Below, piece after piece: positions 1 to 39,528 of a stretch of 39,528 bases of DNA. The notes beneath the pieces are model-generated. The model saw only the letters and a list, made by a program, of their open reading frames with translations. It did no database searches and had not been told where the DNA came from. Each line of letters starts with the position of its first letter. The stretch's first letter is position 1. Origin of the DNA: Gonapodya prolifera JEL478 (taxonomy: Eukaryota > Monoblepharomycota > Monoblepharidomycetes > Monoblepharidales > Gonapodyaceae). The position numbers and the translations under genes are program-made. The DNA lies in NCBI GenBank assembly GCA_001574975.1, contig KQ965798.1, forward strand, positions 18,245-57,772, read 5' to 3'.

Positions 1-1
1 T

Positions 2-567: not shown

Positions 568-2143
568 ATGATGACCCCTTACAACACTTTCCAAGCAGCA
601 GCAGATGGCACTGACGCTGCTGGCAAGATCAAAGGTGAATGGACCAATGAGGATGTCCTTGCAATGCTCCCAGGAGCTGGATCCAGTGCCCAGATTAAGA
701 AGTGGATTCCAATGGTTCAAGTAGCCACTAAAGTACCTGGAGTGAGTTGCTGCGTGTGTTCAATTCTGGTACAATGTAGTAATTGGATATCTATGCACTT
801 CACAGCTTGTGGAGCTTATAAAACGGGACTCACAGGACAACTGGAATTGGCCATACCTAACGATCCAAACCCTGTACCCTGACAGCAAGGTGTATAAATT
901 TGCAAAAGACTACCCTGAACTTGCTGTAAGTAAATGCTGCAATGTGAAATGTGAATTTTCTTGCTAATGGAATCTGCTTTCAGGCTATCTTTTATCACCA
1001 ACTTGTAAACTCTGATCCTCAAGTAACAAACGCAGAGGTTGAGGATCTTGCGGTCCAGTGGACAAGCAAGTACGGCCCTTGGTACAATGAGATCAAATCA
1101 AAATGGATCATGGATGTTTGGACTGCTGCAAAAATAAACAAAGCCCTTCTGGCACTGTACAAAGGTGAGGCTTCATTGGATTTTGAACTTGCACATTTTC
1201 AACATTTCCATGAAGGAACATTTGTCAATTGTGCTACAAGACAAGAGTTCCTTGACATGGCAGCTGAAGTGTGCTTGGGCTGTAACAGGCCAGGCAAAGC
1301 AAAAGGTATGTTTTTCTCCTGCCCCATATTGATTACTTTCTTACACTCTGTAAAACAGGAAAGCAGCCACTCTCAAAACCCATTGTCTTGGAGAGTGATG
1401 ATGACCAAGCCCTCAAAGGTTTCTCACCACCTCTTGAGTCACGTCCAGCACCTCCAAATTCAAAGCCAGGGCCACTGCTAAAGGCTTCTTCTTTGGGTGC
1501 AAAGTCTGCAAAGGCAAATGTACCATCAACAGCAATGCCACCTTCTGTTCCTATTACACCAAAAAGTAAACCTGAAGATTTGGAAGTTGTTAACAAGGTG
1601 GAGGTATTACTGTTTCATTTTGCCCAGTTCATGGAGATACATGCTCATATATTTTGCTCACAGGAGGATGCAGATAATGACAAACCACAACTCCTTGTTC
1701 CTTTTGTTGATCCAGTCATCAAACTTGCCCATAAACATTCCTTTGCTTCTGATGTATCAACATTCTGTACAGACCAAAAACTTCAAATGGGCAAAGTAAT
1801 GGAACCCTCCATGATTGTATAGCAGATGAACCATGACAGGGTTGATGGCATAGTAAGTAAACAATTTTTGTTTACTTATACACTGTGACACCATATTATA
1901 TCCCTCAGGGCTCATCTCCTGCACCTCAAACTATCTGCCAACACTGCTTTCCACTATATTGTTGTTGGCAAAACACCTACTATGACAAAGGCAAAGACTG
2001 ACACTGACATTGCAAATTCTACCACCATCCTGAAGACCTGGGATGGTGTTATCTTCCTTGTTGTGGTAAAAGGTACAGTTCCAGGCCAATTCACATGGTC
2101 AAGTGTCACGGCTTTCTGGTCACAGCTGGCTTCATCAATGTTT
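568..2143 (+). pseudogene. Decayed copy of an unrecognised intron-rich multi-copy gene family
   Basis: Exons inferred from splice sites: 568-741, 806-925, 984-1164, 1216-1305, 1359-1597, 1664-1852 and about 1909-2143. The product starts MMTPYNTF and carries WTSKYGPW, CATRQEFLDMA, a GFSPPLESRP linker, KPQLLVPFV, FASDVSTFC and KGTVPGQF. The second copy at 37091-39528 (-) matches it exon by exon. Exons 4, 5 and 6 are 90, 239 and 189 nt in both copies. This copy has an in-frame TAG at 1820-1822. It also has an internal deletion joining the CQHC and VVGKTP regions, and loses its 3' half where a copia LTR begins at 2144. I do not recognise the family. The start at 568 follows the gypsy LTR directly, so upstream exons may be missing. 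Confidence 0.7.
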
Positions 2144-2395
2144 TGTGAAGACGCTAGAGTTGTGGGACTTGTTAAGGATTGGCTGGTTTGGGTTCACTTT
2201 ATGCCCAAATGGATGATTGATGTTTCACACTGAATGCTACAAGTCTGGCCTATTTATATGCATGTGCTGAGTTATGACTAATACCTATGAGTCATACTAT
2301 GTGTCATATGTGTGAGTCATCTATGAGTCCCACATGAGTCACCACATGTCATCTATGAGTCCTCCATTATGAGTCACCAATGACTCATCTCAACA
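2144..2395 (-). repeat. Ty1/copia LTR (minus orientation)
   Basis: On the minus strand it begins TGTTGAGATG, directly after a G-rich purine tract (2396-2405) at the 3' end of a copia pol remnant, and ends CTTCACA at 2144. The inner edge falls exactly where similarity between the two unknown-family copies stops, just after ATGTTT. This suggests insertion there. A TATAAATA box lies at about 2252-2259 on the minus strand. The other end of the element is not visible, so no target duplication can be checked. Confidence 0.7.
2288..2387. promoter_or_regulatory. Cluster of five TGA(G/C)TCA bZIP sites in the copia LTR
   Basis: Perfect 7-mers lie at 2288-2294, 2313-2319, 2335-2341, 2370-2376 (TGAGTCA) and 2381-2387 (TGACTCA), with further one-mismatch copies between them. 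This is the consensus of AP-1/Gcn4-type bZIP activators. The cluster lies about 30 nt upstream of the LTR's TATA box in its direction of transcription, the layout of an upstream activating sequence. Confidence 0.6.
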
Positions 2396-2440
2396 CTCCC
2401 CCTGAAGATGAACACTCTAGTTTGAATCTTCCAACATGCA

Positions 2441-3257
2441 TCAAACAACTTGCATCATTCCCATTGATTCCTTGTGCTTCTCATAAGATTGTTTGGCAAC
2501 TGGTTTGGTCATGATGTCTGCAACGTTCTTCTGAGTTGTGCAGTAACCAAAGACAAGATTCCCTTTTCATCCCTGATGAAGTGATTCTTAATGTCAAAAT
2601 GTTTTGACAGCTTGTGATGAACAGGGTTTCTTGCAAGTGCTTGTGCTCCTTGATTGTCTCCTAGGAGCTTTGGGGGTCTGTCCATTTGTCCATAAACTTC
2701 TATAGCTCCCCCTTAAGCAAAACCAAGCTCTCCCAGAAACTGAATGATCCAAAGTAGCTCACGTGTTGCATGATATTGCATTCTCTTGGTGTCTTCCTTG
2801 GTGTCATGTTTCACAAATCCTCAATGTCTGTGAAAGTGCTTTTACCATGAAGCAGTCAACTGCTTCAGTGTTGGGCAGAACTAGTGGCAAAATGATATCA
2901 ACACACCAAAATCCTAAAGGATCCAGAGAAAGAGAAACTGATGATAAATCTCCCAGTGACACCCTGCGCAGCTCAACATCTCATAAAGGCCCCTGGCCAC
3001 TTACTCTTTCACTTGTCTCATACACTTTGCTTGCATCTGCCTCTGTGGCATACATCTTGAGCTCCCACACCCACCTACTTTGTGAGTATGGCATCATGTG
3101 CCTTGAGTGTTGATGGTAGGAACAACAGGTAACCATCTCAAATGGAACTCCATCTTTGCACAAGATACGCACAGTCCGCCAGGTACATTTCCAGTCATAT
3201 TTCTCTGGTGACCTACACTTTGATACAGTTGGACGTCAAGCCAGAATTGCATTGCTG
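2441..3257 (-). pseudogene. Ty1/copia pol remnant (RNase H end)
   Basis: The minus strand encodes the C-terminal RNase H part of a copia polyprotein: LLWIIQFLGELGF, then GDNQGAQALARNP, VHHKLSKHFDIK, and an end matching YCTT...VADIMTKPV with a stop at 2441-2443. A one-base shift at an AAGGG run (about 2545-2555) and in-frame stops upstream show it is dead. The sequence from about 2830 to 3257 still has short open stretches (for example CKDGVPFEM, WVWELKMYA) that I cannot align to copia. It may be other inserted DNA. Confidence 0.75.
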
Positions 3258-3262
3258 GGCAT

Positions 3263-3502
3263 TGTCACACTGACATCCACTAACATGGAGTATATAGTGT
3301 AGTATGAGTGTTGGGTATTAGCTGCTGTGCTACTACTGTGGCCGCGGGTTTAGATGTGCACACCTGCAGGACGTGCCCTAAGTTTGGCATCACGTTCCTG
3401 CAGGTGAGTTCTATGCACATTNCGTCTTGCTATGTACATCTGATCATATATACACGTTCCTGCAGTTTACAGGCTCGTGCAGCTCACCTAGGTTGTGTAG
3501 CA
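3263..3502 (+). repeat. Gypsy solo LTR, copy 2, with target duplication GGCAT
   Basis: A 240-bp TG...CA repeat of the same family as 316-556. GGCAT lies immediately before it (3258-3262) and immediately after it (3503-3507), a perfect 5-bp target-site duplication. There is no internal sequence, so this is a solo LTR left by LTR-LTR recombination. It fixes the family LTR boundaries. It contains the inverted repeat (3361-3406) and the conserved splice-site pair (3404 and 3465). One N is at 3422. Confidence 0.9.
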
Positions 3503-3507
3503 GGCAT

Positions 3508-4265
3508 ATTCCCTCACCTTTTCCACGTCCTTTCTGCACAGGCACTCATTGGGCTCCATCCTGCACACGTTTGCTGCATGGGATTTATCATGAGCTTGAC
3601 AGCCTTTACTTCTGTGGGAATAAAAGGTGCATGGCCTGAGGCTGACTCTGCATTCCCCTTGCTCATGCTCACGTGTGCTGGTGCTTGCACAATTGGGTGC
3701 CCTTTGCCATGGCCATACATGTGGCACAATTCATTAGCTCCCAACACTCTATATGCATCTCTTTGCAATGCCATCAAGAACAATGGCGCCTGTAGTTGCC
3801 TGGATTGCAGGCATTTCCATCTTGCCAACTTTTCCACTGACAAACAGCTTGTTCTGAAGGCTGGGCTCCAAGAGGACTTCATCACTTGGCTCTCAAACCC
3901 CACAACCACATCCCTGGACAACAGTGCATTGAAACAGCCTTGCCTGGAAGGCCCCAGCACCAGCACCATGCCCTCAGCTCCCGCAATCAACATGAACTTT
4001 GCCACTCTGCTGAACACATCAATCCAGAGCCAGGTTGACACCATCAACCAGGTCAGTGAAATGTCAACTTTGTCTATCAGCAACTCAATCTTATACAGCT
4101 CAAATGGTCCCACTCACCACTCCACTCCTGGGACTAGGCACCACAATTGAGATCTTGAAAGACATGCTGGTGGCATTGGCCAAGAAGCTTGGCAAGCCAG
4201 AGGACGCCAGCAGGGACTCCTCAGCTGGCCCAAACACAATGGAAACAGAGGTGGACAAGCCATAG
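3508..4265 (+). pseudogene. Unrecognised coding fragment with a Cys/His cluster
   Basis: From the solo LTR the plus strand is open to 4150, with coding-like text: CNAIKNNGACSCLDCRHFH about one third in, then a Ser/Thr/Pro-rich part and TSIQSQVDTINQ. A GT...AG pair (4052 to 4098) looks like an intron. After it a second frame reads LGTTIEILKDMLVALAKKLG and ends in VDKP with a stop at 4263-4265. The phases across that intron do not match, so the gene is either broken or spliced differently. The Cx1Cx2Cx3H spacing does not fit a zinc finger I know. It may belong to a transposable element, given its neighbours. Confidence 0.35.
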
Positions 4266-5957
4266 TGGTATGGCACTCTTTGGACTGGGTTTAGAAACCT
4301 GAGACTCTTTGGACTTTGGCAGGTGAATGGTTGGACCCTTCAAACTTTGGCAGGGAAGGAGTTTGGAGATTGGATGTATCAGACACTTGCGTAGTTGTTT
4401 AGCCTTTATTGGATCGTCTGTTGAGCCCAGAAAGGGCCTCTCTACACACAATACACTTGGGAAAGAATCCCTTTTATGCGCCTAAACCAATGTGCAAGTG
4501 CAGTACCCAAAATTAAAAACATACAATAGCTTTCTTTCATGCTACTTATTCTCTACGGCGTCACAGTGGCATACTTTTCTTTCAGTTCTCTTCCACCCCT
4601 ACGACCTTCACAGTTGCAACAAACTGGGTCAGCCTCTTCGCTTCCTTCCTGACCCCAAGCAACATGTGCTGTGAAGACTTTGAAACCTCTGCTGGGTCCT
4701 TTTTGCTGAGAGAATTTCTGGTGTGCGTATCTTTTTTCACACTGGCTCTTTGGTACTGCCATTTTTGGAACATGGATGGTGTACATATGGGATGAACCAA
4801 TGAAAGATCTTTGACAGAGCCTGCTTGGATCTGCACCCTTGCTGGCTGTAATGGCAGGGCTGGCATACAGCCATTGGCATTAATTTGCAGAGTTACCATT
4901 TGTACATCACTATTTTCAACTGAATCGCCTGACGACTTTTTCCACACCATAAACTTGAGTCCCATGGAACCCTCAACCTCCCGAGGCCAGTTGGACACGC
5001 ACAGACACGCAACGTCCTAAAATTAATAATATAACCCTCAGACGGGGCTTGGAGCAAGTCTTGGGTGGATTTGAGAAAGAGCAAATAGCAAACACGGACT
5101 TGAAACGGGCATCTGGACCCCGAGACCACGCCGGATAGAAGTGGGCGATGCGAGCGGGGAAGAATGGCGGGGTTCACTGGCAACTTTATGTGCTCTACTT
5201 GATTTAGCTTGGAGCTGGCGGAGTTTGTTTGCAACCAACGTGAGAGTATTCTGGTGTACTTCTCATGCGGGGAGTGACTCTGCAGCTCTGGTTGAATTCC
5301 GGAGAACCGGCAGGCGACATCTCGATGCACTGGAGCGACGATTACATTTTTTCGTTGAGATTTGGAGGTTACAGCCGGAGCGCGGTGGATCAATTGCTCC
5401 GCGGACACAAATGACCGCAACCAAAGAGACGCGTCTGCGGTGCAATGTAATCTTACAATTGGCTATCCGCCTCCGTCTTCATTGTCTTCGCCTTCGCGTC
5501 CGCCGCTGTCATTCAAGTCGCCGCTCGCCACCTCGTTGGTTGCCTCGCCTTCCCGCCTGTCGCAGCTGCGCATCTCGAGGCTTGAAGGATCACATTCCCC
5601 TCGAGCAAGCAAACTTTTCCTCCTCGCCGCGATTGCCATCGGGAACAAAACAGTCGCGGGTTGTCGGCTGACTGGAATACCCGCTGGGCTGCGGTCACCG
5701 TGACTCCTCACACTTTGCACGCTCCTCAGTTGTCTGCCTAATGAGATTAAGTGACAGGCAGAACCTAATGCAGCACAGAGTTGGCTGGCGGGCGATCACC
5801 GAAAAATGAATTCAAAATGCAATGCGGGGTTGTCGTGGTCAGCACCCTGATTTGGCAGGTACCTGCCGAGGGGGAGAACCCCGGGGTCGATTGATTTTCC
5901 GTCCTTGCATTATAATGACAACCTGCAGTTTCCTAATCGCTAATCTCCATCATCACC
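4266..5957. other. Gene-poor interval upstream of the homogentisate dioxygenase gene
   Basis: I see no recognisable gene. Positions 4280-4380 carry short direct repeats of CTTTGGACT and AAACTTTGGCAGG. The stretch 5040-5720 is GC-rich with overlapping open frames on both strands but no family match. A minus-strand frame (ATG near 5636, acidic GREGEDNEDGGG end near 5470) could be an exon, but I cannot extend it. ATTATAA at about 5909 is a possible TATA element for the downstream gene. Confidence 0.4.
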
Positions 5958-20115: not shown

Positions 20116-21375
20116 ATGTCCTGTTCACTTGGCAACATGTCCAGTTCACTAGACGATATTTTCAAGGAAAGTGCTTATCCACGTCTATCTCGTGAACACA
20201 AACACTATGTCTGGTGCACCATCAATGCAATACTCCTTGCTTTCCTCTGTGTGACTTCCGTTTTATTTGTTTGGGTTGGTACATACTGGTCAGTCTCCTC
20301 TTCCCCACAAGGCACTTTGATTTGGGAGAAATCAACTATGGCAGTTTTTATGAACCAATTTTTGGGGGTTGTTGTGAGCCTTGCCACGTGCCAGCAGTAC
20401 AAAATGGATGTTGTTCAGACTCTTGTTTCATAGGTGCACAAAGATGACTTGTTTGAAAACCACTTGGTTCCTGGCATGACTACTGTAAGTCAAAAGGCTT
20501 TCTTACAAAACTCAGCTTTTCTTAATACTCATGGTTTAGCTTTGCATGACTTGGTGCTATCATATGCTGATTTATAGTTTAAAAAGTTTGAGGCTGCAAT
20601 TGATGCAGTTGGGGAACATATTGAGAAGCTTGGGTATGAAATGGCCCGGGCACCATTAACTGACAAAAGGAAGCTAAGCATCGCTGCACAAAGTGGTGAG
20701 CTCAAATTGCATTTGATAAAGGATTATTGAAATGATGATTTGTTGCGTTCATTCTCCCCATCAGCCCTTTTATCGGATGTATTTGGAGATCTTGTCTGTA
20801 CCTAAAGAAAAAGAAAAGTGCAACAAAATCTTTTCTGCATGCTTCTCAGGAGCTCTGGCCACACCTTGGAATTCAGAGAAAAGGCTTTCCAGCGTTATAG
20901 AATCTGATTTGGAGTCACTGTGTGACCTTCTTCATTATAGGCAAGAGCGATTCCATCTAAGAGAAGAAACTCATGCAAAACGACTTGAAAGTGATGTTGG
21001 GGTAAGAAATGGCAGGGTAGGTCCTTTGTGGTCTCTCTACTTACGTTTGTACTGTTGAGGAAGGGTGAAGGTATCCCTTGGTATTATTATTGTACTGACT
21101 TCAAGCCTGATGCAGTCGTTTGCATTAGCACTCTTGTTCTCACCATTGCGGTTTATCTGTGGCTTTGGTTTTACGATCTCCACGAGAAAATTGATCCATT
21201 GGTAGACTTTTTAAAGAAGCGGCGGACGGATCTCAAAAGCCGCATTGATCGGAAAATGTCGGCCATCATTGAACCACTCAAAAGTGATGGGAAGAAAACT
21301 GAGAATGGTAAAGCCACTCTGTTGGGACTCCAAAAAGTATCTCGGGAGTTACGAGAAACCTTACCAGAGGTATAA
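20116..21375 (+). CDS. Unrecognised two-TM protein, reading frame uncertain
   Basis: The first exon (20116-20373; an inner ATG at 20137 is also possible) encodes a charged start and a hydrophobic segment (WCTINAILLAFLCVTSVLFVWVG). The 20374-20433 and 20485-20577 introns splice in phase to VHKDDLFENHLVPGM and FKKFEAAIDAVGEHIEKLGYEMA. Later coding-like parts are SEKRLSSVIESDLESLCDLL, ERFHLREETHAKRLESDVG, and a last exon with a second hydrophobic segment (VVCISTLVLTIAVYLWLWF) and a basic tail ending in PEV at 21373-21375. Phases disagree around 20765-20870 and again at the GGGG run near 21000, so the gene has frameshifts or unusual splicing. Base composition is AT-richer than its neighbours. Family unknown. 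Confidence 0.4.
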
Positions 21376-21811
21376 CCCACTCTAATATGTAGATATCTGT
21401 GATTGAAAAGTACCGTTGCAGGTTGTGACATTGGCAGGTTTTAGAATAATTGCACTTTCGCGCTTCTCGTGCGCCTCTTGTGTGCGACTGTGCCTAATTG
21501 TGCGTACAGGTTTGCTTGGGCAGAGACGTCGACGAATGCGAGCAGGATGTCTGTGAGTGGAGTGCGAGCTGGACGGACAGTGGTGACAGGTGCAGAGTCC
21601 GATTAAAATGTCATGACTGGGTCTTCTCAGCTTCCGAACAAATTCGATGGTGACGTCTGGAACCGCAACACAACCAACGCAACAATGTAAAAAGGGGAGA
21701 TAGTGGTCTGAGTACAACAAAATTGAAGTGATCGGCCACGGCTTATGATGCCGATTGCCTATGAGCTGCTTTCCGTTACCCGCTGAAGCAAGCTCTGACT
21801 ATTAATTCGGG
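21376..21811. other. Intergenic region upstream of the Furry/Tao3 homologue
   Basis: About 435 bp, presumed promoter of the next gene. I see no gene, repeat or clear TATA box. Confidence 0.4.
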
Positions 21812-24800
21812 ATGGACCCCCCGCGTCCTCTCTCGACGGGCCGGACGCTGCCGCTGATTGTCATCCCACCTCCACCTGGCGACTCGTTGAGCAGTTCTCA
21901 ACGACCACACACCACCACTGCATCCTCTGCACCACGCAGCAGTGTATTCGAGGGTTTTCAGGGATTTCGGGCAGGAAGCCCATCACCAGCCCCCGCGGCA
22001 GGATTCGATGGACGAAAGACTCCAACACCGATTGTCATTCCCCCTCCTCCCGGCCCGAGCCGGGCTCCACCACAGCAAACAAGCCCCGTCTCGAGGAAAA
22101 GTGCCGACTTGCAGGGCACGCGACGGTCAGGCGGTGGTCGACTGCGCTCCACGAGTCTTCCTGGAGTCGCGATTTCGGGAGCCGACGCGGACGGCGCTTC
22201 GAATGGATCTGGTCCAAAAGACGGCGAGCGCATGGATCCCTTTGCAGGATTTTCTTTTGACGCGGCGGCGCGAACGGCGAGAGAGACGGTGTGGACGAAT
22301 GGTGGCGGCTTGGGGGTTGGGCGAGATCGGGACCGCGACGATGCTTACAGCGTTCACACTCGCGAATCTACGGCTGATACGACTTACGGTGGAATACCTG
22401 CAACTGGTGGGGGCAGGAAAGGGCCCACGTGGCTTGTGCTTCAGGACCTCATGGGAGAGTTTGTGCGCATTGCCGAGGTGAAAAGTGCAAGCATCCTTGG
22501 ATTAAATGTCTCTGTAAGTTCGTGAAGAGAGCTCGAAAATACTGGCTTGTGTCTAAAGGCGAACTCAAATTCTGCAAACGGAGCTGGGTGTCTGCGATTT
22601 CTGTTGCTGTGAGATGGCTCTAAGCATTCCATGCCAATCAATCATTGTAGGATCGTGACGCCGACCTCTCGTCGTACCTCCGTCCTGGAGTTGACCTTGC
22701 CTTCGACCGCGTCGTGTCGTCGTTGGGTCGCATGTCCCGACACTACCCAAAGCTCATCCTGGATTCTGTCATGGTGTGGCGCAAGACGAAAAGCGAAGCG
22801 GCAGACGACCAAGATGATTGGGGGTCAGACACTGCCTCTATGATTTCGGGGCCGCGGCGATCTATTGATGAGCGTTCGCGAGGGGTGTTGAGAGAAAGGC
22901 GATCTGTGAGTGTTGTCGAACAGGAAATCTCAGTTCCTGCAATCCCGTAACCGTGTGCGCTTGTTGTAAAAGCTTGTCGCCAACTTCATTCTCTGTCGCA
23001 TATTACTTGAAATCATTCGTAACAATGAGACCAGCCCAAGAGGCCTTCCTAATGACTTGGGTGCTAAACTGGAGGATATGCTGTTTGGCCAGCTCATTAA
23101 CAGTGACCCGTAAGTTACATTCAAATGAACGCGACTGGATGTATAGTCTCATATGAACGGTAGAGAACTTCTTGCACTCTCCCCGAACCGTCAAGCGAAT
23201 TTTGAAATGTTTGCTGAAGTTATCGGAGCACTTTCACGAATAAGGTGAGTAACGTCTAGAAAGGAATAGGGCCACGTTAAGGGAACTTTTTGCTAGGTTT
23301 TCATCAGTGACAGATAAATTCGCAGCAGAGTTGCCCAAGCTCTCCCAGGCGAAAGAGGGAAAGCTGGAATCTTTCCTCGGTGCCACCAGGTTCCTCAACC
23401 TAAAAGTAAGAANACTGTGATGGTTGGTAAAATTGAGGACCGTGACTCATCTAATTGTTCGTGATTTTCGTGGAAGTTGTATCCTGTTGAGTCGCTCGAA
23501 GAATCTGCGGACTTCATTGAGACTCTCGCCCACCACTTTCACAGCGCTCACTCTCAACGGACGAAACAAAGCTACGCAGAAGTTCTCGTAGAGGTATTGG
23601 AACCCCTAGGCGCGCAGGCAACCGCGGAGGTGAACGTCCAGAGTTGGGCCAAAGCCATCGAGTCACTCTACAGCAGAGCGCTCAAGCTCGCGGGAAAGCC
23701 CAGGCATTATCCCGTAGGAGTACCTCTTCTTGCAACAACATTATCTGTCGCTCCAAAGAACCTTTTCCTAAATAATTGGAGCACTTTCGTGGATTACTTT
23801 TTGACAAGACTGAAGGAGAAGAATACAACAATACGAAGACTGGCGTTGGCGTCATTGGCGCGAGTTGTATGGGTGTACTTGTTCCGGTGTGGTGATGCTT
23901 CGTTATCCAATGTGCAAAGAAAGCTCGAGCACATTTTTCGGTGAGTGGACCTTGGATGCTTGAGGTAGAAATTTTCTCATATTGTTTCAATGACAGATAT
24001 CTTCTTCCCCCACGCCGACGTGACATCTTCCCCTCTGAGACTCCAGGTTCAGTGGAGGTCCTCAGTCGTATGGTTGCCTATGTTGGAAACAAGCATTGGG
24101 AGTACGCTGTGGACTCGTTAATCCTGCCACTCTTGAGCAACGATCATCAGCCTTCAACAGCGACAGCCGGAGCAAGCTCCCTTGGAATTCCTGGGACTAT
24201 GGCAACAATGGCAACGTCGAACTTCATGGCAACAACCGGTGCGGCCAGTAGCACCTACGCTACGTTTGCGACTGGGGTCTCACTTGCCCCTTCAAGCCTT
24301 GCCCCGAGTATTCTATCATCCGCCTCAGACGAAACCGGAGATACATCGCTTGCGCCAGAGAGGATGATTGTAGCTCTGAGGGGCTTCTTAATGATGTTAT
24401 CGGACGCTGAGGCTGCTGTTAATGCGTCAATGGATGATGTGAAGCCGAGCAGGTCAAGGGCTGAATCAACTGGTAGTACAGGGCGGGGACTCTCTGGAAG
24501 AGTTGTCATGCCCGTCCCCCAGTTCCCGGGACTGCTCTCTGATGCCGACTTGAGACCCTCAAATGTCACCAAGTTAGGTTCGGGAGATTGGGAGTTTCTA
24601 AAAAGGGCATCTGCGGCAATTTCCATTGCAGTGAGTCGTCAGAGAGCAATGAAAGCGTGGCACCAGTTGAACTTCCGCTTCAGATTCCCTCGGTCGATCG
24701 ATCAGTGATTCCGTCAAAAACTCCCTCAAGCAATGAATTAGTAAAGCAATCCAGCTCGCAAGGGTTTCATCCGGATGGAGATGACTTGCCCTACCTTCCG

Positions 24801-27800
24801 GGGCATATTCTTTCTATAACCATATCTGAGAGGATGGGGCTTTCGGCCGTGGAATCTCTCCATACCGTGAACTCGATGTTTGGTCGGTTACTTATCAACA
24901 CAGACCACGTAGTTGGTAGTCTTCTAGTGCTCCTTGATGCAAACGTTTGGTCAACTGCTTCGCGTGAGAAGGAGAGAGACGATAACTATCGCCTGAGTAT
25001 CGCTTCCGCAATGTCCTCTGCTTCGAGCGGAAAAGAGGGATTTTCTGCTTCAAGAATTTCTCTCAAGCGAGGATCGTCGGGTGGTGGACTTGAACTCAAC
25101 TTGGATGGCTCCGCCTCGTCTTCACTGAATCAGTCATCAGGGGCCACGGCACTTAGCGCATCATCTTTTAAAAAGTATCAGCACATCGAACTTGCGAGAA
25201 CTCTGATATCATGCATCCCGAGATGCTGTCCCACATCTCTAACACCTGAGTTTGTCGTGGATTTATTGGCGAAGTATCTGTTGCATGCCGATGAAGGAAT
25301 ACGAAAGCAGAGTGCTCTGGCTCTGCTCCGGATAGCTAAAATTGAAGAAGATGGAGGCGACTCTGGTTGGTGGGTGAACGATCCTGGGGAAGAGTCGGAC
25401 CCACCTAGAGCCCGCACGCCATCTACAATCGGACCACGGTTGCAATGGATGAACGTTGAAGAGATGGTTGCACGAGTCTGCACCGAATCCTCTCTCACAT
25501 TCATTTCAGACCATATGTCAGAGCTGGTCGCGTTTCTGGGGAAGGGGGATGATTTCGATCAAAACGGGACGGGTAGCTTGTTTGACAATAACCTCAAGAC
25601 CATTGTGCGATTGTCGGAACTTTGGGCAGCAGAACGAAAGGACGCCTTCATCAGGTGCGATTATATTAATCTTGATACCCGACGTTTTCATTCAAACGAA
25701 CAATATTATCCCTTTCTAGCGGTTCAAAAGATGACCAAGATTCTGCTGACTCCCCGAAAGACCCCGATGCCGTCAACATGGTCTTTGAAGATATCGAAAG
25801 CTGGGGATTGACACTACTTCTGGGACCGATTCCGCCGGTTCGAAAGTACGGCTTGCAGCTTTTACGGATCGCCGCAAATCTCATGGATGAGACTCTCGGT
25901 CCGCCTCCATCGCCACCTGCCTTTCTTACCAGCCCCATACCAGGAATGGGCGATCCGAGAAGTTTCCTTGATAATCCCGGGAACAAAGAAATGCGGATCG
26001 TTCACATTATGGAAAATTCTAGCGATGAGCTGGTGGAAAAACATTTCAAGGGTATATCAGTGTCCGTGAGCGCAGGTGAAACGGCAAAACTGCAGGAAGT
26101 TGCGCGCCGCGCTCGACTATCAGGCAAGCAAGGGCTCGCTACTGTGGCAACNNNNNNNNNNNNNNNNNNNNNNNNNNNNNNNNNNNNNNNNNNNNNNNNN
26201 NNNNNNNNNNNNNNNNNNNNNNNNNNNNNNNNNNNNNNNCTCACAATGACGTTGACACGAATATGCAGACAAATTGCGCAAATGCTACCACATATTGTTG
26301 CTGCCGCCGATCAAACAACGCCGGCGCCAGAGCGAAGCGGTACCTCCACTATTGTTTCGTGGGCCACTACTCCGTATCGCGTCTTGGTACCCCTTACCAA
26401 GTTTGGATCACAGGCACCATCTTCTGTCCAACCTGCCACTGATGACATGATACAACAATGGTCAATTTGTCTCATTTTTGCAATGGCTGCTTTGGACTTC
26501 CTTTCACCAAATGGTGCGGAAGGTCCACAGTGGGAAGGCGCACTCCGTCGAGATCAACCCGGAGTGCGTCCTATACCCATCACTTCTTCAAAGGCTCTGT
26601 TTCAGCTTGTTCTGCCACTGCTCTCCGCGGAAAAATTATCAATCCGCGCCGCCGTCATTACCGCCCTTGGAAACCTTACATCTTCAAACTACTATCCACT
26701 GTTTCAAGAGCTACAGCCCTTGCTTAATGTTATCGCAGAAGACCACAACCAACGTTTAGCAGGGGGTGGAATGGAACAAGGCTTTGGGCAGAGGGCAGTT
26801 GCGTTACCACAGCAACCGCGACCTCGATCAACGAGTGGATTGCTTATGGCAAACTCCGCCGCCCAAACAAATGCTGCCCTGAAGAAGATTGAGCGCCTTC
26901 GTACAGAAGTAGCTCACCTATTCTCATTAACATCTTGCTTTATGAAGGACGAAAAGTGCCGTAACGATCCAGCCGTCCTATTCTCTGTTGCTCAGTATAT
27001 TCTGCAAGGTTCCCGCTTTCTCAGTGACCCAACAGTCCAAACAGATTGGGGTTTTCTTAAATATCGCTATCACTTTTGTGGGCTGGTAATATCTTACACA
27101 ACCTTTCGGTTGGATCTTCCTTCCCTAATGAGACGTTTATCTTTTTCAAGGTGGAAGAACTTTATAAATTGAATTCACCAAACAGGTCTACAGACGAGGA
27201 GACTGATCAATATCTTGATATCAATGCCTCCTTATCGGAACACTACCGTGGGAGCCCTGCGGAAACGCGAGTCCGGCAACTATTTTCTTCGGAAATGCGT
27301 CACGTTTTATTCAAGCTGGCGGAATCGTGAGATAGAGCAAAGCCGTGGAATGTGATGATGGTTACATTCATTTTCTTTCTCTTGATAGATGGTGTGGACA
27401 CGGTCCGATGGGTCCACTTTCCTTGGCACGAGACACCCGTACAATAAATACCGCCGTTGAAAACATCCGCGATCCTCGTGAGCGCTCAAACTTGGCCATA
27501 ACAATGCATGAGCAGCGGCAGCTTTTGGAGTACGCGGCACTTAAATGCATGTCCGTTTTACTTCAAGGACCCCTTGTTGCGACAGACAAATTGTCAGAAT
27601 CCTCTTCCCGAGATGAGGGCGCCATAAAGAAGAAGGGTCGACACTCAAAGAATGTCTCCGAGGGTGCCAGCGACGATTTGAGAACCGCTGCATCACTTAT
27701 AGGAGCAACTGACGAGGCAGGTGCACCCTCAGGCTCATTCAACATTGAGTCCGTGTTTTTGTGGATTGAATCCCTCTGTGAGTGGCAAGATTTTTATTTT

Positions 27801-30800
27801 GGGCAGTACATTGCTAATGCCTCAATTAGTCAAGGGATCCGACCAAACCATTCAAGGCATTGGTCGTGTTGCCTTGAAGTCACTCATAGAGAGCAGCAAG
27901 GATGATGGTGCACTCATTGTGCGCTTCATGAAGCACTGCTTTGTTCCGGGAAATGCTATTTTTGACAGAGCTTGCTTCACCGCCCTTGCGAATGCTATGA
28001 GCACAATCGAGGATTTCCGCTGTCGNCTCGTCAGACAATTAGTTTTGGCGCTCACAAAAGTTGCGGATGAGAGCATTGTTGTCAGGAAGTCTGCGATTAA
28101 GCTTATTGGGAGCGTTCAAACAAGGATCCTTGCAGACGAGCAGTTATCGTCCAATAGCCTCCGATCCCCACCGGTGTCCATGGATGATAGCGAGTCAACG
28201 CTGGCGTGCTCGGCGCTGCCAGGCGATTCAGAGACTGTGCAGCGGTTGTTCTCCGTACGGCTTGCCATGTCGCATCCTGAACAATCTTTGGAGGTTTGTG
28301 GTGCTGAAAATTTGGTTGGCTTTGCTCCTGCCTCACCGCTGTAAATCATGCAAAGACCATGTCCGAACTGTTCTATTGGCTGGACGTGGTTGCATCAACC
28401 AGTGTATCTCCCGCCCACACCAAAACCAAAGACGCGGCAATCAAGCTTATGCTGCGCATGCTGGTTCCATGGGTGAGAAACCTAAATTTGGCGAGTCCCA
28501 TGCAGTGGGACGTATTTGTTAGGTCTTATTCTCCCAAAAATGAACCGAACATGGAAGATTTCCAGAATAGCATCATCAACGGCCTTCTCACGAATTTGTT
28601 GGTCCTTTCGGTTCGATACATTGATCGATTTACCACGGAAATCGAAGCTCTATGGAGAAACTTTTTGGAGGAACTGTGAGATGTGTCGTGTCAGCTGTTC
28701 GCGACTTTTCACAAACAGAATTTCTCATAAAACATAGGTCTACTGTGGACTTGGGACTTCGCGCTTACCAATCTCTTGAAATGATGGTGGAAGGCGAAGA
28801 GGAAACGTGGACCCGTGGCATTGTCGGAGCAGCAGCACATCTTGAGGTTCTTCTGGATTTTCTTCTCACAATCGGGACTACTATTCGGAACAATAACTAT
28901 CTTAGTCTCGCGAGACAGATCATTGGTATTGCAGTGAGAAGTCGGATTGGTGGTGCTCACCTGGTCGAAAGGCTCGTTTCCGAGATCACCATAAAGAATC
29001 TACTTCCGCCCAAAGTGATGGACCGGGTCGGACAGGAGCCTGAAGACCAAGCTACAGTTCATTCGACGGTGAAAACATTTGCGCTCTCCGCTCTCACGGA
29101 CTCCACTGCCGCCCCAAAGAACCTCGATGCCAACAACAAATTCATGTATGTTGCGGACCTTGAACGTGAAATGGTCTCCACACCGCGGAGGCCGCCTTAC
29201 TCCCGCGCACAGCTTGCTGCAATGCTTTTGAGGGACTTGACGTACACTGTTGGGTCCGAAGTCTTTCTCGAGCATCTCCCAATCCTAGTGCACACCTGTG
29301 TTGTACACTTTGATGCCACCGTGACTGTGATCAGTGAAGATCTGAGAACACTATTTTACCATCTCATCCGAACTATTGTGCCAAGCAGCGTGGACGGAGC
29401 AGTTGGTTTGGCGAAGAGGCTCGAGGAAGCGAAAGGGCAAAAGTTATGGGGGAATGAAGACGTGGCCCCAACCGCAGATTCGATTGCAAGCAACGCGGAG
29501 CTCACAGAGTTTGTGATGTTGGCAGAATCCGTATTTTCTGCTGTCGACGAGGACTTTGGCCAAAAGTGGGGCGAAGTTGCATTGCTTTGGAGCACGACAT
29601 CCTCAATCCGCCATACCGCTTGTCGTTCACTCGAAGTTTTCCGAGCAATCATGCCAGCGGTGACGCTGGATATGTTGGGTGATTTTCTTGCGCGATTGGG
29701 CAAGACTGTTGGTGCACGTTCGGATGAGGCACAAGGATTCGCGTTGGAAGCCTTGAACACGATGAAGGCAATGGTAGAGCCTCTGGGACAGGACGATATT
29801 ATTATGTTTCCGCAGTTCTTTTGGACGTGTGTGGCGGCGCTGCAGAGTCCACATGAGTGGGAATTTTTACGCGGCGCTGAGATTCTGGATAAAATATTGA
29901 GGAAGTTGGACCTTAAGAACCTCCAGATGGTAAATTCTCTGAAAGCTAATCTCCCCCGTGACTGGAACAACGGATTTTCGGGTCTTCAGCCCCTCCTATT
30001 GAAAGGATTGGCATCTTCAGTCACTGAGCCGATATCACTTACGATTCTCAATTACTTGATTCAATTGGACCACAACCTTGTGGACGATTCTGGAGAACGG
30101 GTCCTGTTTTGTTTACTGGCCAATCTCCCTCGAATGCTCAATCGGGAGGAGCCGCATCCAGAACCCGATGCACTCAAAGACGAAACCACTTGGAACCTTG
30201 AGGCCGATCTTGCTGCGCTCGCTCGAGGGAAAGGCCATGATGCCTTGGCCAAGCAGCTCAGTGGGTCCCTCCGCACAAAGTTCCGTACCAAGGCAGACTT
30301 CTTGGGATACATTCTCAAAGGCGTCGAAGAGAGTTTCTTCCCAGCGCTCGAACTTCCTACGCTTCGTTTCGTGCTCGGATTGTTGGGAAACAGCAAGGAA
30401 ATCTATCGAAGAAATTCGCTCCAGATCCTGAAAGTTCTGATTCCCCGAGTGGGCCTTTCACAGTACATGGATCTCATCATGGGTGAAGAAGGCCTACTCA
30501 CGCCACTTTTGGACTTGCTTCGGTCTGACCTCGCGCCTGAAGTGTTGGAGGTGTTGGACGCACTCCTTGGGCAGGATGACCTCTCGGACTTGCGATATAT
30601 TTTCAGTTCACGCAAAATCGCTAAAATGTGTCGCAATTCGGCCAACTTTGACGTTTCAAATGCCGTTCCGTCGGTTGCACGGTCTGTTACGGGAGGCAAG
30701 GAGGAAGAGGTGAACATTGCAACCGGTTGGAGGGTCCACGACCGCGAAAAGGCGTCAGAACTCGTCAAGCACAACCTTGGCGTGGTTGCAGCTACTGCAT

Positions 30801-31178
30801 ATAAAGACACACAGGAAGACCAGACGGAAGGATTCATGGTCTCGGACTCCTTCGCAAAATTGAACCGGTCAACCACGAGTTTACCACCTGTGGGGGATGT
30901 CCCGACCATTAATCTGCCAGACCCAGGCCCTGAGAGAACGGACATTTCGAATACGTGAGTTCGCTTTGGAGTGATTGGATGAAAATGATTCATAACGCTT
31001 TGTCGTCGACAGATTGATGCAAAACCTCGACGAGATCTACTCCACGGTGACGTCCCGAATCATCGCGTCGTTAGAAGCGCCTCAGGCGATGCGGCACCAG
31101 CGAGACTCGAGCTCTGGCTCCAGTGGCCCACCGACGCGCCCAGTCACGCCAAGTCGCAATTCGATGGTAAAAGATTAG
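21812..31178 (+). CDS. TAO3: Cell morphogenesis scaffold, Furry/Tao3(Pag1)/Mor2 family
   Basis: Large HEAT-like scaffold that works with NDR-family kinases (Cbk1/Orb6) in the RAM/MOR polarity pathway at growth sites. Fifteen exons splice with consistent GT...AG sites: 21812-22513, 22651-22905, 22973-23109, 23164-23244, 23297-23405, 23477-23940, 23997-24630, 24684-25654, 25720-27085, 27151-27326, 27389-27777, 27830-28293, 28356-28675, 28738-30954 and 31013-31178. They total 8,451 nt, 2,816 residues, within or above the family's 2,200-2,400 plus. A disordered Pro/Ser/Gly-rich N-terminus (about 210 residues) has two copies of PIVIPPPPG-like sequence. The N-terminal morphogenesis domain follows (FILCRILLEIIRN, FAEVIGALSRIR, TTIRRLALASLARVVW). 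Helical repeats then continue to EIYSTVTSRII. An 88-base assembly gap lies in exon 9 but the frame continues across it. Ns also occur at 23413 (intron) and 28026. Confidence 0.9.
26152..26239. other. Assembly gap (88 N)
   Basis: A run of N inside exon 9 of the Furry/Tao3 homologue. The frame is open on both sides and in register across the gap as sized, so about 30 residues are unknown. Confidence 0.98.
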
Positions 31179-35441: not shown

Positions 35442-35681
35442 TGTCACACTGACATCCACTAACGTGGAATATATAGAGTAGTATGAGTGTTGGGTATTAG
35501 CTGCTGTGCTACTACTGTGGCCGCGGGTTTAGATGTGCACACCTGCAGGACGTGCCCTAAGTTTGGCATCACGTTCCTGCAGGTGAGTTCCATGCACATT
35601 ACGACTTGTTATGTATATTTGATCACACATACACGTTCCTGCAGATTACAGGCTCGTGCAGCTCATCTATTTTGTGTAGCA
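35442..35681 (+). repeat. Gypsy LTR, copy 3
   Basis: A 240-bp TG...CA repeat, very close to copy 2 over its full length, in the same orientation as copies 1 and 2. Flanking pentamers differ (GGTCA before, TTATG after), so there is no target duplication. The inverted repeat is at 35540-35585 and the splice-like pair at 35583 and 35644. Confidence 0.85.
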
Positions 35682-36004
35682 TTATGCCAAACTTCCTTCC
35701 CTGTTTTTAGCCGACTGCAAGTTTCAGATGCTATACAGGGACGTGATTTTTAGCAGGCACACGCCCCATTACACTATCTATTGAGGCAACGCGTTGCTTT
35801 TTGAATTGAATCACTCAGTGAGCAGTAATCTCTCTTGGCGTAATTTTGAAAACGGGATTGGCGACACAGAGCGAATCCACATATTGCAATTTCAATGCCA
35901 CCGCTCGTTGCACATTACAATCGATATTGCACATTCAAATTTTCGCTTTAATTGGACTACTACATGTTGAGTTATTCACGGAATTGTCAGCAGATTGTAA
36001 CTCT

Positions 36005-36445
36005 CAGTCATTGATATGAGTGAGTGAGTTACTTGCTCATTTTGTTCAACTTGCTACTCACTCACAAGTCAGGTGCCAAACTTGCAACTCGGCTCGCTCA
36101 TCAACAGAGGCAACTTGCTACTCACGAGTTGACTTGCTTGGTGTTCAAACTAGTTTATGCAAAGCCCAAACCTTTGATTCACCCAATTGCAAAAAAAATT
36201 GTACAATTTCAAACCAACCAATAATAAAAATTGCTTTTATTCATCATTTTCTAGCCATTATTGCAGGAAACTCTTGTTTCCACTTCTTTAATAACATTAA
36301 GCTTCTAATCATCCCCACACCTAATCGCGCCCTCTTATCACCAATGGCATTCTGACCTGCTGAAAAGATCCTCTCTGCCTCTGCACTTCTCAAAGGTATG
36401 TTTGATTGCAGATGGTGTGGTATTGTCGTCTCTGTTCAGTTAATC
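36005..36445 (-). mobile_element. hAT transposon 3' end
   Basis: The minus strand from 36445 encodes the C-terminal dimerisation domain of a hAT transposase: PLRSAEAERIFSAGQNAI, GDKRARLGVGMIRSLMLLKKW, and a stop at 36244-36246. ERIFSAGxxxxxxKRxRL is the family hallmark. Between the stop and 36005 lie many GAGTGAG/CTTGCTACTC subterminal repeats. The end is probably CAGTCATTGATATGAG at 36005, as hAT ends often start CA. The adjacent 8 bp (35997-36004, GTAACTCT) would be one side of the target duplication. The frame stops upstream at about 36446, so the element is a fragment. Confidence 0.75.
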
Positions 36446-36461
36446 ATTTGTCTCTGGACAG

Positions 36462-36895
36462 GAGCGCTCTCCGAACAACACATGCATGTGGAAGTGCTTG
36501 CGGAGTTGGCCGCCATGCTGGAAATCACACGCAAAGGTTCTACAGGTGGCAATGGAAAGGAGAAAGGTACGTCTTATGAGATTCCATTGCAAAGCACTAA
36601 TGCAATGCATCACTCACCACCATCCAGCTCAAGAATCCTCCCTGCCACGCAACGCACCCCCTTCACCCAAACCACGTTGCACAAAACCAAGCCATCCCTC
36701 TGTGTCTGCCGGTTTGCCAGCCACAGATGCTGATCCCAAAACTGTGAGTAACTGGTGTATGCCAATTTGAACATTGCTAACATTCATTGGCTATATCTGC
36801 AGTTCAATCTGACTGCTGAACGCAAGGAAGACAACAACACTCAAAGTGCTTCTAAATCCTCAAAAAAAGAGACAGAGGCTACCCCAAAACAGAAG
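36462..36895 (+). pseudogene. Unrecognised plus-strand exon series
   Basis: Three exons with canonical sites and matching phases: 36462-36566, 36628-36743 and 36803-36895. They encode ALSEQHMHVEVLAELAAMLEI, then a Pro/Ser-rich stretch (PSPKPRCTKPSHPS), then a Lys-rich end (SASKSSKKETEATPKQK), and run into a GTAAGT donor with no partner exon in sight. The upstream acceptor (CTGGACAG) abuts hAT sequence. The exon-phase pattern (1-1, then a low-complexity exon) resembles the unknown family at 37091-39528, so this may be a divergent relative cut by the hAT insertion. It is a fragment. Confidence 0.35.
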
Positions 36896-37090
36896 GTAAG
36901 TGAAAGGCTTTAATTCCTCAGTACATTCATATTTGTCCCAATGCTGACACACCCCCCACCCTGGGGACATACCCCCACCAAAAACAGGAAGCACCCCCAC
37001 CTCACCAAAGTCATATTTGTGATTCAGAAAAGTAAAACACCAAGTTGTTCTCACACACATTTATTGTAAGGAAAATAAAAGTAGGTACTT

Positions 37091-39528
37091 CTACTTCCTA
37101 CCACGTTGAGTCCGAGCTCCCATACCCTCGTCATCAGTTGTGTCCCTTCCCCGCTTCCGTGTAGTCCGAGTATCCTTCACAGCAGCTGCTGCCCTAGTCA
37201 CAACTCCTGGTGAGAATGCTGCTGCAGAACCACCACGGCCCTTAGGCTTAGAGGGGGTGGGAATATCTAATGCAGATTACCATTTAGTATAGCAACAGGT
37301 TCAGTCCATGCATATAAGTCAAAAAACTCACCAACATCAGTTCCAGCAAAGGTAGATGCTGGAACTGCAGCTTGTTTGGACCTTTGGGGNGGTGTGCGTG
37401 TAACTATCAAGATGACTGAAGTGAGATTCCATGCTCATCCAAAAGGAAATAAGAAACACAAGCCCCTACCTTTTTCAAGATCAGGTCCACTTCCCTCGTC
37501 CTCACCTTCATCATCCTCATCATCCTCATCATCCTCCAAATCGTCCTCCTCATTGTCCTCCCGACCCTCTTTGGCCTCAAGAATCAAGTAGCNACCCACT
37601 GAAAGGAGTTTTCAGTGAGACTTAACACAAACATAAAATTGTTTCTCTCACCGTCTTTGGGAATCTGTGGCACCTTGGGGATGCCCTTCTCGTCACCACC
37701 AGCATCCTCCTCCTCATCCTGCTTGTCCCCATTATTACTCTCTTCTCAGAAGCTGCCTGATCCAGCACAAAGGTGCAGAACATCTGAGTGATGTATTGCA
37801 GCCTTTTCTTGTTGGAGCGTAGCAACCTGTTGGTGGGGTGGGTGTGGGTGTTGGTAAAGTACCAGATTAGTGCGGCAACGCATTGACAAACAAAAAACAC
37901 TTACATGTAAAATGCATTGAATGCATCTTTGCCAAACTCCTCCTCTAGCTTGGCCACAAGGCTGTCAACCCCACTGAGGATTTCACTTGATACTGTCATG
38001 CCATAGAAATGGCGGCCAAGTGCAGCACAAGCTATGGCAAGCGATCCGCATCCAACAATTGGTGCAAATACGGCATCTCCAGAGTCGGTCATCAGGAGTA
38101 GTAGCTCCATCCAAACCGCAGCAGCAATTTGGCTATGGAAAGCCACCGACAATGTCTTCTTGCCTGGAGAAGAGGTTTTCTGTAAATGGTGTGAGTGTGG
38201 GAAAGCTGAAAAAGTTCTGTAGAATGTTGTACCAGACTTACCAAAATCTCCAACTTATGTAACTTAGAGGCGGCCGGAAACATGGATGAAGTGAGCTGGG
38301 ACCAAAAAGCCATGGCACTAGACCAGGAGAACTGGCCAGGAACAGTTCCTTTCACCACCACAAGGAACATAACCGTGTCACCTGTCTTGAGGATGGTGGC
38401 AGTACTTGCAAAGTCGGTGTCAGTTTTTGTCTTGGTGGAGGTTGGTGTCTCGCCAACCTCAATGCGGTGGAAGGTTCTACAACCAGCAAGGTAGTAGTCC
38501 GACTGGATAGCGCCAAAAGTTGAAAGCTCAACAGCCTAGGGGATGGGCAAGTTATCATAGAGTGAGTTTGCACACACTCCAAGTCTGTCACATACCTCCA
38601 AAATAATGCCACCGTCTTTCAAGATGTTATTGTAGCAGTGTTGACGCACAGTTCGATGGGCAGGAGACGCACCCTAATGGATAGTGTAGTACTCTGCATA
38701 TGCAAAACCAAAATTTTACGTACCACACCATCCACCCCATCAGGTCGTATCTGCATTACGATAAGTGAGGGCTCCATTGCCTTGCCCACTTCAAGTTCTG
38801 AGTCTGCGCAAAATGTTGATACATCACTGGCAAAGGCATGGTTAGAGGCAAGCTTGAGAACTGGACCAACAAAAGGAACCAAGAGTTGCGGTTTGTTGGG
38901 ATCTGCATTCTCCTGCGAGCAAAATTGATGAATGCACATCAGAGTAAAAATTGCAAATGTGAAAGTGAGTGACTCTACCTCGATCGCAACTTCCTTGTCC
39001 TCCAGTTTCTTGCGGGGTCTACTGGGAGCTGCGGAAGTTGTTGCGGCGGAGGGCGCATCCGTCTTTGCAGACTTTGCACCCATCAAAGAAGCCTTTACCA
39101 GAGGGCCTGGCATAGGTTTTGGCGCTTGGGGACGTGACTCGAGGGGAGGTGAGAAACCTTCCTGCACTTGAGCGTCATTGCTTTCGTTGACGGTGGAATT
39201 GGAGAGCGGCTGCTTTCCTGTGTTGCACCAAGTAAGGCCACGCTCGAGTTCAGTTAGATGGAAAACATACCTTTAGCTTTGCCTGGCCTATTGCGGCCCA
39301 AGCACACTTCGGAAGCCATGTCGAGGAATTCTTGCCTTGTAGCACAATTGTCAAACGTGCCTTTAGGGGAATGTTAACAATGTATGAGATCAGACCCAAA
39401 CAAAGCATCACCTTTGTACATCTCCGTAACTGCTTCATTAATTTTTGCTGCAGTCCACCCGTCCGTGATCCGTTTTGATTTGATCTCCTTGAACCACGGG
39501 CCGTATTTGCTGGTCCACTTGACTGCAC
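37091..39528 (-). CDS. Second copy of the unrecognised multi-copy family, 5' end beyond the window
   Basis: Exons on the minus strand: 39528-39412 (partial), 39360-39271, 39217-38979, 38912-38724, 38673-38596, 38535-38242, 38179-37905, 37826-37652, 37598-37470, 37403-37332 and 37266-37091, all GT...AG. In order the product has WTSKYGPWFKEIKSK, CATRQEFLDMASEVC, a GFSPPLESRP Pro/Ala linker, KPQLLVPFVGPVLKLA, HRTVRQHCYNNIL, KGTVPGQFSWSSAMAFWSQL, FHSQIAAAVWMELLLLM and LRSNKKRLQYITQMF. A strongly acidic stretch (EDDLEDDEDDEDD) follows, then a basic tail with AT-hook-like PKGRGG and TRKRGRD. A nuclear, possibly DNA-binding role is a guess from the tail. A one-base shift in the 37826-37652 exon (GAAGAGAG, about 37740) separates two good frames. 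Ns lie at 37390 and 37593. Family not recognised. Confidence 0.65.

What the first reader, a model, noticed from the sequence alone, without database searches (positions are those of the whole stretch)
568..39528. Unrecognised intron-rich gene family present twice, facing inward at both ends of the window
The plus-strand copy at 568-2143 and the minus-strand copy at 37091-39528 share protein blocks (WTSKYGPW, GFSPPLESRP, KPQLLVPFV, KGTVPGQF) and intron positions. Neither matches a family I know. The C-terminal half, seen only on the right, pairs a long acidic run with a basic AT-hook-like tail. Both copies sit among transposons, so this could be a host family spread by element activity or an accessory gene of an undescribed element.
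Basis: partly seen in the sequence, partly recalled or inferred. Interest (0 to 1): 0.78.

Follow-up and report, generated by a model that had tools for sequence, protein, structure and literature searches.

The report
Fungal jumping gene with bacterial-style ParB
The two matching genes are pieces of a "jumping gene" in an early-branching water fungus that carries a bacterial-style DNA-binding and methylase-like protein; sister copies keep a row of mirror-image DNA sites beside it that the protein may recognise, and similar proteins have so far been reported on jumping genes of algae.

Summary
The protein joins a ParB-like domain to a permuted N6/N4 DNA-methylase-like domain with a degenerate catalytic motif, then acidic and basic tails. 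The annotated relatives found are all from Gonapodya prolifera JEL478. The genome holds about 36 loci. The right copy is the accessory gene of an 8,746-bp DNA transposon (C68:55178-63923; window 36934 to beyond 39528; 3.6 kb of it unread). It has inverted ends, a 5-bp target duplication (AATAT) and a divergent gene for integrase, chromodomain and Ulp1 protease (Ginger-like). Its joined flanks align as one 1.1-kb stretch to an uninterrupted copy of a second clade of the same family, so it jumped into a relative; half of that relative is a third, unreported copy at 36365-36910. The left copy is a truncated, broken remnant. In sister elements the space between the two genes is packed with lineage-specific palindromes (up to 16 in 1.3 kb; shuffles 0.1), possibly ParB-type binding sites. 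ParB-methylase transposon proteins are already reported in algae. New here: the fungal host, Ginger-like carrier, palindrome arrays and decayed catalytic motif. Function is inferred, not shown.

The parts
568..2161 (+). Left copy: 5'-truncated, broken remnant of the ParB-methylase-like gene (aligned exons about 592-741, 806-925, 984-1164, 1216-1305, 1359-1597, 1664-2161); ParB core and methylase motif I missing
   Evidence: Spliced alignment with 2 stops, exon E and front of F lost; preceded by a gypsy LTR end at 556
36365..36910 (+). Third family fragment (clade 2), left half of the copy into which the right element inserted; exons 36365-36566, 36634-36754, 36847-36910
   Evidence: Spliced alignment score 278 to the C38 model; 83% DNA identity over 545 bp to C38:363001-366342
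36929..36933 (.). Target site duplication, window-side copy (ATATT on +, AATAT on -); the other copy lies beyond C68:63923
   Evidence: Flanks identical over 5 bp; empty-site alignment
36934..37000 (-). 3' terminus and inverted repeat of the element (read on +: TGTCCCAATGCTGACACACC...)
   Evidence: Same boundary in 10 of 10 clade-1 copies whose 3' end was printed; pairs with the end at C68:63923
36934..39528 (-). Part inside the window of an 8,746-bp Ginger-like transposon (C68:55178-63923; 3,627 bases of it read N); the integrase-chromodomain-Ulp1 gene and the 5' end lie outside the window
37091..39528 (-). Right copy of the ParB-methylase-like gene, 11 exons in the window (39528-39412, 39360-39271, 39217-38979, 38912-38724, 38673-38596, 38535-38242, 38179-37905, 37826-37652, 37598-37470, 37403-37332, 37266-37091); the ParB exons would lie in the unread gap beyond the window
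   Evidence: GT/AG exons (exon 7 start corrected from 38163 to 38179); 95% identity to P0001 over 80% of the query
37905..38912 (-). Methylase-like domain (four exons); the motif IV position reads SLIVMQIRPDG, the motif I region VFAPIVGCGSLAIACAALGR
   Evidence: PF01555 on the motif I exon E=0.00026, below its curated cut-off; alignment; CcrM match
37470..37598 (-). Acidic exon, 55% D/E
37091..37266 (-). Basic last exon with RGR/GRG (AT-hook-like by recall, no profile match)

Best explanation
The gene family is the accessory gene of Ginger-like cut-and-paste DNA transposons in Gonapodya prolifera or a very close fungus. The best-preserved elements have inverted ends beginning TGT, a 4-5 bp target duplication in half of the cases, and two genes that point away from each other. 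One codes the transposase (zinc-binding domain, integrase core, chromodomain and, in clade 1, an Ulp1 protease). The other codes a protein with a ParB-like domain, a possible helix-turn-helix, a methylase-like domain with a degenerate catalytic motif and, in clade 1, acidic and basic tails. Between the genes lies an array of palindromes that differs between lineages. Most likely the ParB-like part binds its own element's array, as ParB binds parS, and the methylase-like part reads, marks or occupies that stretch, so that the element's promoters stay open and copies are told apart from relatives. Shown: the domain matches, the gene pair, the ends, the duplications, the insertion, the arrays in sister elements. 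Inferred: the array in the window's own element, binding, effect on expression or silencing, and loss of methylation activity.
For: Domains: ParB-like (phrog_1033 in 3 of 5 members, best 1.7e-7; 5x0j 0.0043; Noc 7nfu 0.22) and N6_N4_Mtase (PF01555 in 6 of 7 members, best 2.2e-7; CcrM 6pbd 1.8e-4). Transposase: in C173 Integrase_H2C2 3.1e-7, rve_3 2.8e-7, Chromo 3.9e-10; in C8 Peptidase_C48 2.3e-4; in the window's own element rve_3 3.4e-8, Chromo 6e-9, C48 0.0011. Pairing: 13 gene pairs within 8 kb, 10 of them divergent; 0.31 pairs expected by chance. Ends: one 3' boundary in 10 of 10 clade-1 copies printed; inverted ends clear in 4 of 5 elements aligned (C68, C158, C109, C44), weak in C146, and matched by sequence in C173. 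Duplications: AATAT (C68), GCGGG (C158), CCTG (C109), 3 of 6 loci with both ends. Insertion: joined flanks align as one 1,125-column stretch (78.6%, 30 gap columns) to an uninterrupted clade-2 copy. Arrays: AAGTTCGnnnCGAACTT 10, 7 and 16 times upstream of C44, C38 and C125, 0 in C8, C173, C109 and C1; CTACCGAnTCGGTAG 8 and 4 times in C173 and C109, 0 in the six others. Exact sites genome-wide: 5 of 5 (control 2) and 3 of 4 (control 0) fall in these arrays, the fourth beside another integrase match.
Confidence: 0.78

Rival explanations
1. A host gene family duplicated passively because it sits among transposons; the integrase genes are neighbours by chance.
For: Introns are retained; most copies have no integrase match nearby; LTR copies surround them.
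Against: 10 of 13 near pairs are divergent, 0.31 pairs expected by chance; shared ends, target duplications and the empty-site alignment. The species is intron-rich in general (4.5 introns per kb; PMC8476143 passage), so introns say little.
Confidence: 0.04
2. The protein is an active N6-adenine or N4-cytosine methylase that marks the element as an active gene. In Spizellomyces 6mA marks expressed genes and 5mC is confined to transposons, so such a mark would mimic a host gene.
For: beta-class order with the motif I region kept (G-x-G-S) in 7 of 7 aligned sequences; 6mA context from PMC12695648 passages.
Against: Motif IV, (D/N/S)PP(Y/F/W) by recall, is absent in 7 of 7 aligned sequences: MQIRP, LQTNS, FHIHP, LHVHA, LDFPS, LDFLL, INFPS.
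Confidence: 0.25
3. A captured passenger gene with no role for the element; the palindromes are transposase-binding sites.
For: Subterminal repeats that bind transposases are common in DNA transposons (recall); no binding test here.
Against: The gene is kept in two clades that are 21-27% identical and the array motifs differ with the clade; but the integrase lineage would differ in the same way.
Confidence: 0.18
4. A plasmid-like partition device: the array is a small centromere and the ParB-like protein helps element DNA to be inherited.
For: ParB-like domain plus a palindrome array beside its own promoter.
Against: No ParA-like match in the 20 ORFs scanned of the 43 listed in or next to the C109 element; the elements seen are integrated.
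Confidence: 0.05

Closest known systems
ParB + N4/N6 methylase accessory protein of Sola1-1_Ec32 in the brown alga Ectocarpus (PMC12477816, passages and part of its reference list read; it cites similar proteins of green and red algal transposons: Iyer 2011 and Petroll 2025, neither read)
   Same: ParB-like domain plus N4/N6 DNA methylase domain in one protein; accessory gene of a DNA transposon; transcribed on the strand opposite to the transposase
   Different: Carrier is Ginger-like, not Sola1; host is a fungus; complete elements 7.4-8.7 kb, not 21.5 kb; catalytic motif degenerate; palindrome arrays found here (none mentioned in the passages read)
Ginger1 and Ginger2/TDD DNA transposons (PMC2836005, abstract and passages read)
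   Same: Gypsy-like integrase with H2C2 zinc domain, Ulp1 C-terminal domain in clade 1 (as in Ginger1), inverted ends of about 45-95 bp, TGTNR starts at most ends, 4- or 5-bp duplications
   Different: Chromodomain in the transposase (the word does not occur in that paper); a second, divergent gene; target sites are not CCGG/CCGT
VANC anti-silencing proteins of VANDAL transposons (PMC5735166, abstract read)
   Same: Accessory protein of a transposon; its targets often form tandem repeats that vary between related elements
   Different: Different protein; action shown experimentally for VANC, only inferred here
Bacterial ParB-parS (recall)
   Same: ParB-like domain; palindromic sites beside the gene
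   Different: Sequence similarity weak; no ParA seen; sites in arrays that differ between lineages

Membership tests
Transposon-borne ParB-methylase accessory proteins (algal type) | ParB-like and N4/N6 methylase domains in one protein | tested here: met
   P0001 and P0004 carry both
Transposon-borne ParB-methylase accessory proteins (algal type) | Gene lies inside a DNA transposon, opposite strand to the transposase | tested here: met
   C68, C109 and C173 have both ends and both genes; 10 of 13 near pairs divergent
Transposon-borne ParB-methylase accessory proteins (algal type) | Common descent with the algal proteins | not tested
   algal sequences were not fetched; they were not among the hits
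Ginger superfamily | Gypsy-type integrase with H2C2 zinc domain and DDE core, without reverse transcriptase | tested here: met
   (H2C2 seen in C173 only; in C68 it would fall in the gap); no reverse transcriptase, RNase H or polymerase match in the 20 ORFs scanned of 43 listed in or next to the C109 element. No tree was made
Ginger superfamily | Inverted ends 40-270 bp, start TGTNR | tested here: met
   4 of 5 elements aligned clearly, C146 weakly; 5' ends TGTCA/TGTTA fit, the clade-1 3' end TGTCC does not
Ginger1 | 4-bp CCGG or CCGT/ACGG target duplication | tested here: not met
   AATAT, GCGGG, CCTG
Ginger1 | Ulp1 or OTU domain at the C-terminus | tested here: inconclusive
   PF02902 2.3e-4 in C8, over its cut-off, 0.0011 in C68, under it; no match in the C173 and C109 pieces
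Ginger2/TDD | RTATAY target preference | tested here: inconclusive
   three duplications only; AATAT is AT-rich, GCGGG and CCTG are not
Polinton/Maverick | 6-bp duplication and protein-primed polymerase B | tested here: not met
   4-5 bp duplications; no polymerase match in 20 of 43 ORFs; elements 7.4-8.7 kb
LTR retrotransposon | LTRs and reverse transcriptase | tested here: not met
   Inverted ends; no reverse transcriptase match in 20 of 43 ORFs
Catalytic N6/N4 DNA methylase | Motif IV (D/N/S)PP(Y/F/W) | tested here: not met
   absent in 7 of 7 aligned sequences (motif recalled)
ParB | Binds a palindromic parS-like site | not testable with these tools
   palindrome arrays present; binding not tested

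The most novel reading that the evidence does not exclude
A parS-like system in a eukaryote: a transposon-coded ParB-like protein is loaded at lineage-specific palindrome arrays between its two promoters, spreads along the element, and uses a decayed methylase domain as a reader or scaffold, not as an enzyme, to keep the element open and to tell its own copies from relatives. The presumed recognition helix appears to follow the site: Q-[IL]-K-K-W in 4 of 4 copies with AAGTTCG arrays (C44, C38, C146, and the C125 subfamily read from P0001), Q-I-G-[KN]-W in 4 of 4 with other arrays (C8, C173, C109, and C1, which has a stop in place of Q). C44/C38 and C173/C109 are close pairs, so about six independent cases.
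Probability: 0.23. Interest if true: 0.85.

Novelty: new variant of a known kind. Interest (0 to 1): 0.62.

Why it matters
Algal work has proposed that ParB-methylase proteins of transposons bind and mark their own element, without naming a binding site in the passages I read. Here candidate sites can be pointed to: palindrome arrays whose exact copies were found only in or beside these elements and which change with the lineage. That makes the idea directly testable, and carries it to fungi and to a different kind of transposon. The decayed catalytic motif suggests that at least in this fungus the job may not need methylation. It also shows that the element inserted into one of its own relatives.
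Full report
What is in the window. The window is C68:18245-57772 of a 47.6-Mb genome in 207 contigs. The spliced right copy has 11 exons in the window with GT/AG borders. In the protein set it matches three proteins at E up to 0.001, all annotated as Gonapodya prolifera JEL478; the best, P0001 (631 aa), is 95% identical over 80% of the query. A profile search with seven rows found six proteins at E up to 1, all from the same strain (only the 7,994 candidates sharing most words were scored). The organism is therefore this species or very close to it. No relative elsewhere was found, but that search needs shared five-residue words. The many introns are ordinary here: G. prolifera is reported as the most intron-dense fungus of its survey, 4.5 per kb (PMC8476143, passages).

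Gene family. The N-terminal part of P0001 has GVVDGRHRLCAL and matches ParB-like phage families (phrog_1033 in 3 of 5 members, best 1.7e-7), with weaker matches to TIGR00180 (0.015, one member), to the serine kinase 5x0j (0.0043; a ParB-like fold by recall) and to Noc 7nfu (0.22); HxlR also scores 0.024. The C-terminal part matches PF01555 N6_N4_Mtase in 6 of 7 sequences, best 2.2e-7; two unrelated Pfam families reach 0.002-0.004 in one member each. CcrM scores 1.8e-4. In the matches shown only the motif X/I/II end is covered. The motif IV position is degenerate in 7 of 7 aligned sequences (motif recalled). A Pfam ParB_N six-frame search of the genome found 0 matches. AlphaFold2 was poor (pLDDT 47.7). 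Its helices at 174-180 and 187-200 are where a helix-turn-helix would be expected after a ParB core; this is inference.

Copies. The P0001 search gave 80 exon matches at E up to 0.01, which cluster into 36 loci; the weakest may be chance. Two clades are clear: clade 1 (window left and right, C125, C158, C143, C149, C74, C8, C44, C38:85k, C146, C174, C73, C90) and clade 2 (C173, C109, C1, C38:363k, C126 and the window fragment at 36365-36910). The C173 model has no stop or frame break to residue 632 against its own template; a longer automatic alignment of it ran through 2 stops. Most other copies are damaged or cut by gaps and contig ends.

Mobility. Ten of ten clade-1 copies whose 3' end I printed end at the same place, followed by unrelated DNA; the distance from the stop codon is 139-157 nt in the seven measured. 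Upstream and divergent lies a second gene with zinc domain, integrase core and chromodomain (C173) and an Ulp1 protease match (C8). By my reading of the C173 sequence the last two acidic residues of the integrase triad have 35 residues between them. In the C109 element 20 of 43 listed ORFs were scanned: chromodomain, rve_3 and N6_N4_Mtase were found, and nothing else at E up to 0.01. Inverted ends were aligned for C68, C158, C109 and C44 clearly and for C146 weakly (score 12.5); C173 has matching ends. The window's right copy belongs to C68:55178-63923, 8,746 bp with 3,627 N, TGTCATGATT...GGGACA, flanked by AATAT on both sides. Its second gene runs from C68:61397 outward (the start is in the gap) and shows rve_3 3.4e-8, Chromo 6e-9 and C48 0.0011. 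C158 (8,635 bp) has GCGGG on both sides, C109 (7,435 bp) has CCTG; C173 (7,760 bp), C44 and C146 show no exact duplication. So 3 of 6 loci with both ends carry one. Joining the flanks of the C68 element without one duplication gives a single alignment (1,125 columns, 78.6%, 30 gap columns) to the uninterrupted clade-2 copy at C38. The element jumped into a relative. At C74 too, the DNA just beyond the 3' boundary reads like a clade-2 methylase exon (my reading).

Gene pairing. Of 36 ParB-methylase loci and 26 integrase loci, 13 pairs lie within 8 kb: 10 divergent, 1 convergent, 2 tandem; 0.31 pairs are expected by chance. Thirteen integrase loci have no ParB-methylase match within 8 kb, and 26 ParB-methylase loci have no divergent partner there.

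Palindromes. The stretch upstream of the accessory gene holds arrays of palindromes. With up to 3 mismatches, AAGTTCGnnnCGAACTT occurs 10 (C44), 7 (C38), 16 (C125) and 2 (C146) times, against shuffled means of 0.03-0.11, and 0 times in C8, C173, C109 and C1; 31.8 kb of window between the two copies gave 4, shuffle mean 2.2. CTACCGAnTCGGTAG occurs 8 (C173) and 4 (C109) times and 0 times in the six others. C8 has its own motif (5 hits), which also gives 5 in C125 and 2 in C44. The motifs were derived from these regions, so these counts describe, and the genome scan is the fairer test: all 5 exact motif-1 sites lie in C38, C44 and C125 arrays (reversed control 2); of 4 exact motif-2 sites 3 lie in C173 and one about 180 bp from an integrase match on C2 (control 0). 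With one mismatch, 17 of 30 sites are in or beside elements, control 23. C44 and C38, and C173 and C109, are near-identical pairs, so these are not all independent. The window element's own array would lie in its N gap; its close sister C125 (99% over the last 162 bp) has one.

Mechanism. The simplest account is that the ParB-like protein binds the array between the two promoters and acts on its own element. Whether by marking, shielding or recruiting is open. The degenerate motif IV argues against methylation. The nearest precedents are the Ectocarpus Sola1 protein, proposed to bind and epigenetically modify its own element (PMC12477816, passages), and VANC, an anti-silencing protein whose targets often form tandem repeats that vary between related elements (PMC5735166, abstract). 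In Spizellomyces 5mC is confined to transposons and 6mA marks expressed genes (PMC12695648, passages), so an element that alters its own marks could gain.

What is known. ParB-methylase accessory proteins of transposons are reported from algae. Ginger elements are reported from animals and a protist, with one vestige in a fungus, Malassezia (PMC2836005, passages). I found no report of either in Gonapodya in ten searches, which cover an open-licence library only. Hence: new variant of a known kind. On rechecking I lowered the main confidence from 0.80 to 0.78 and the novel case from 0.25 to 0.23, because the Ulp1 domain is unmatched in clade 2, one inverted end is weak, and the palindrome cases include near-identical pairs.

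Noticed in passing
window 1-556, 3263-3502, 35442-35681: 3' end of a Ty3/gypsy element (chromodomain recognised by reading) with its LTR, and two more LTR copies (240 bp, 94% alike to each other, 79-80% to the first over 149 nt). LTR-like matches also sit in or beside family copies on C8, C146, C90 and C44 and, by reading, in the last exon of C74.
   Followed up: partly
window 20995-31000: Long multi-exon gene that reads like a cell morphogenesis (Furry/Tao3/Mor2) protein; name from recall, not tested.
   Followed up: no
L070 (C167:10353-13388), C167:11853-11888: An isolated, exact 36-bp piece of the element's inverted end; no other part of the element was recognised in the 3 kb read.
   Followed up: partly
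P0001 residues 244-273: The deposited gene model of M427DRAFT_33493 reads one exon in another frame than the sister copies and skips the exon before it.
   Followed up: partly
C173:34092-34493 and C68:248413-248721: Further integrase matches without a divergent ParB-methylase match nearby, so degraded or shorter relatives of the element may exist.
   Followed up: no
L058 (C173:25901-29700): Best preserved clade-2 accessory gene seen; no stop or frame break in the spliced model; useful for bench work.
   Followed up: partly
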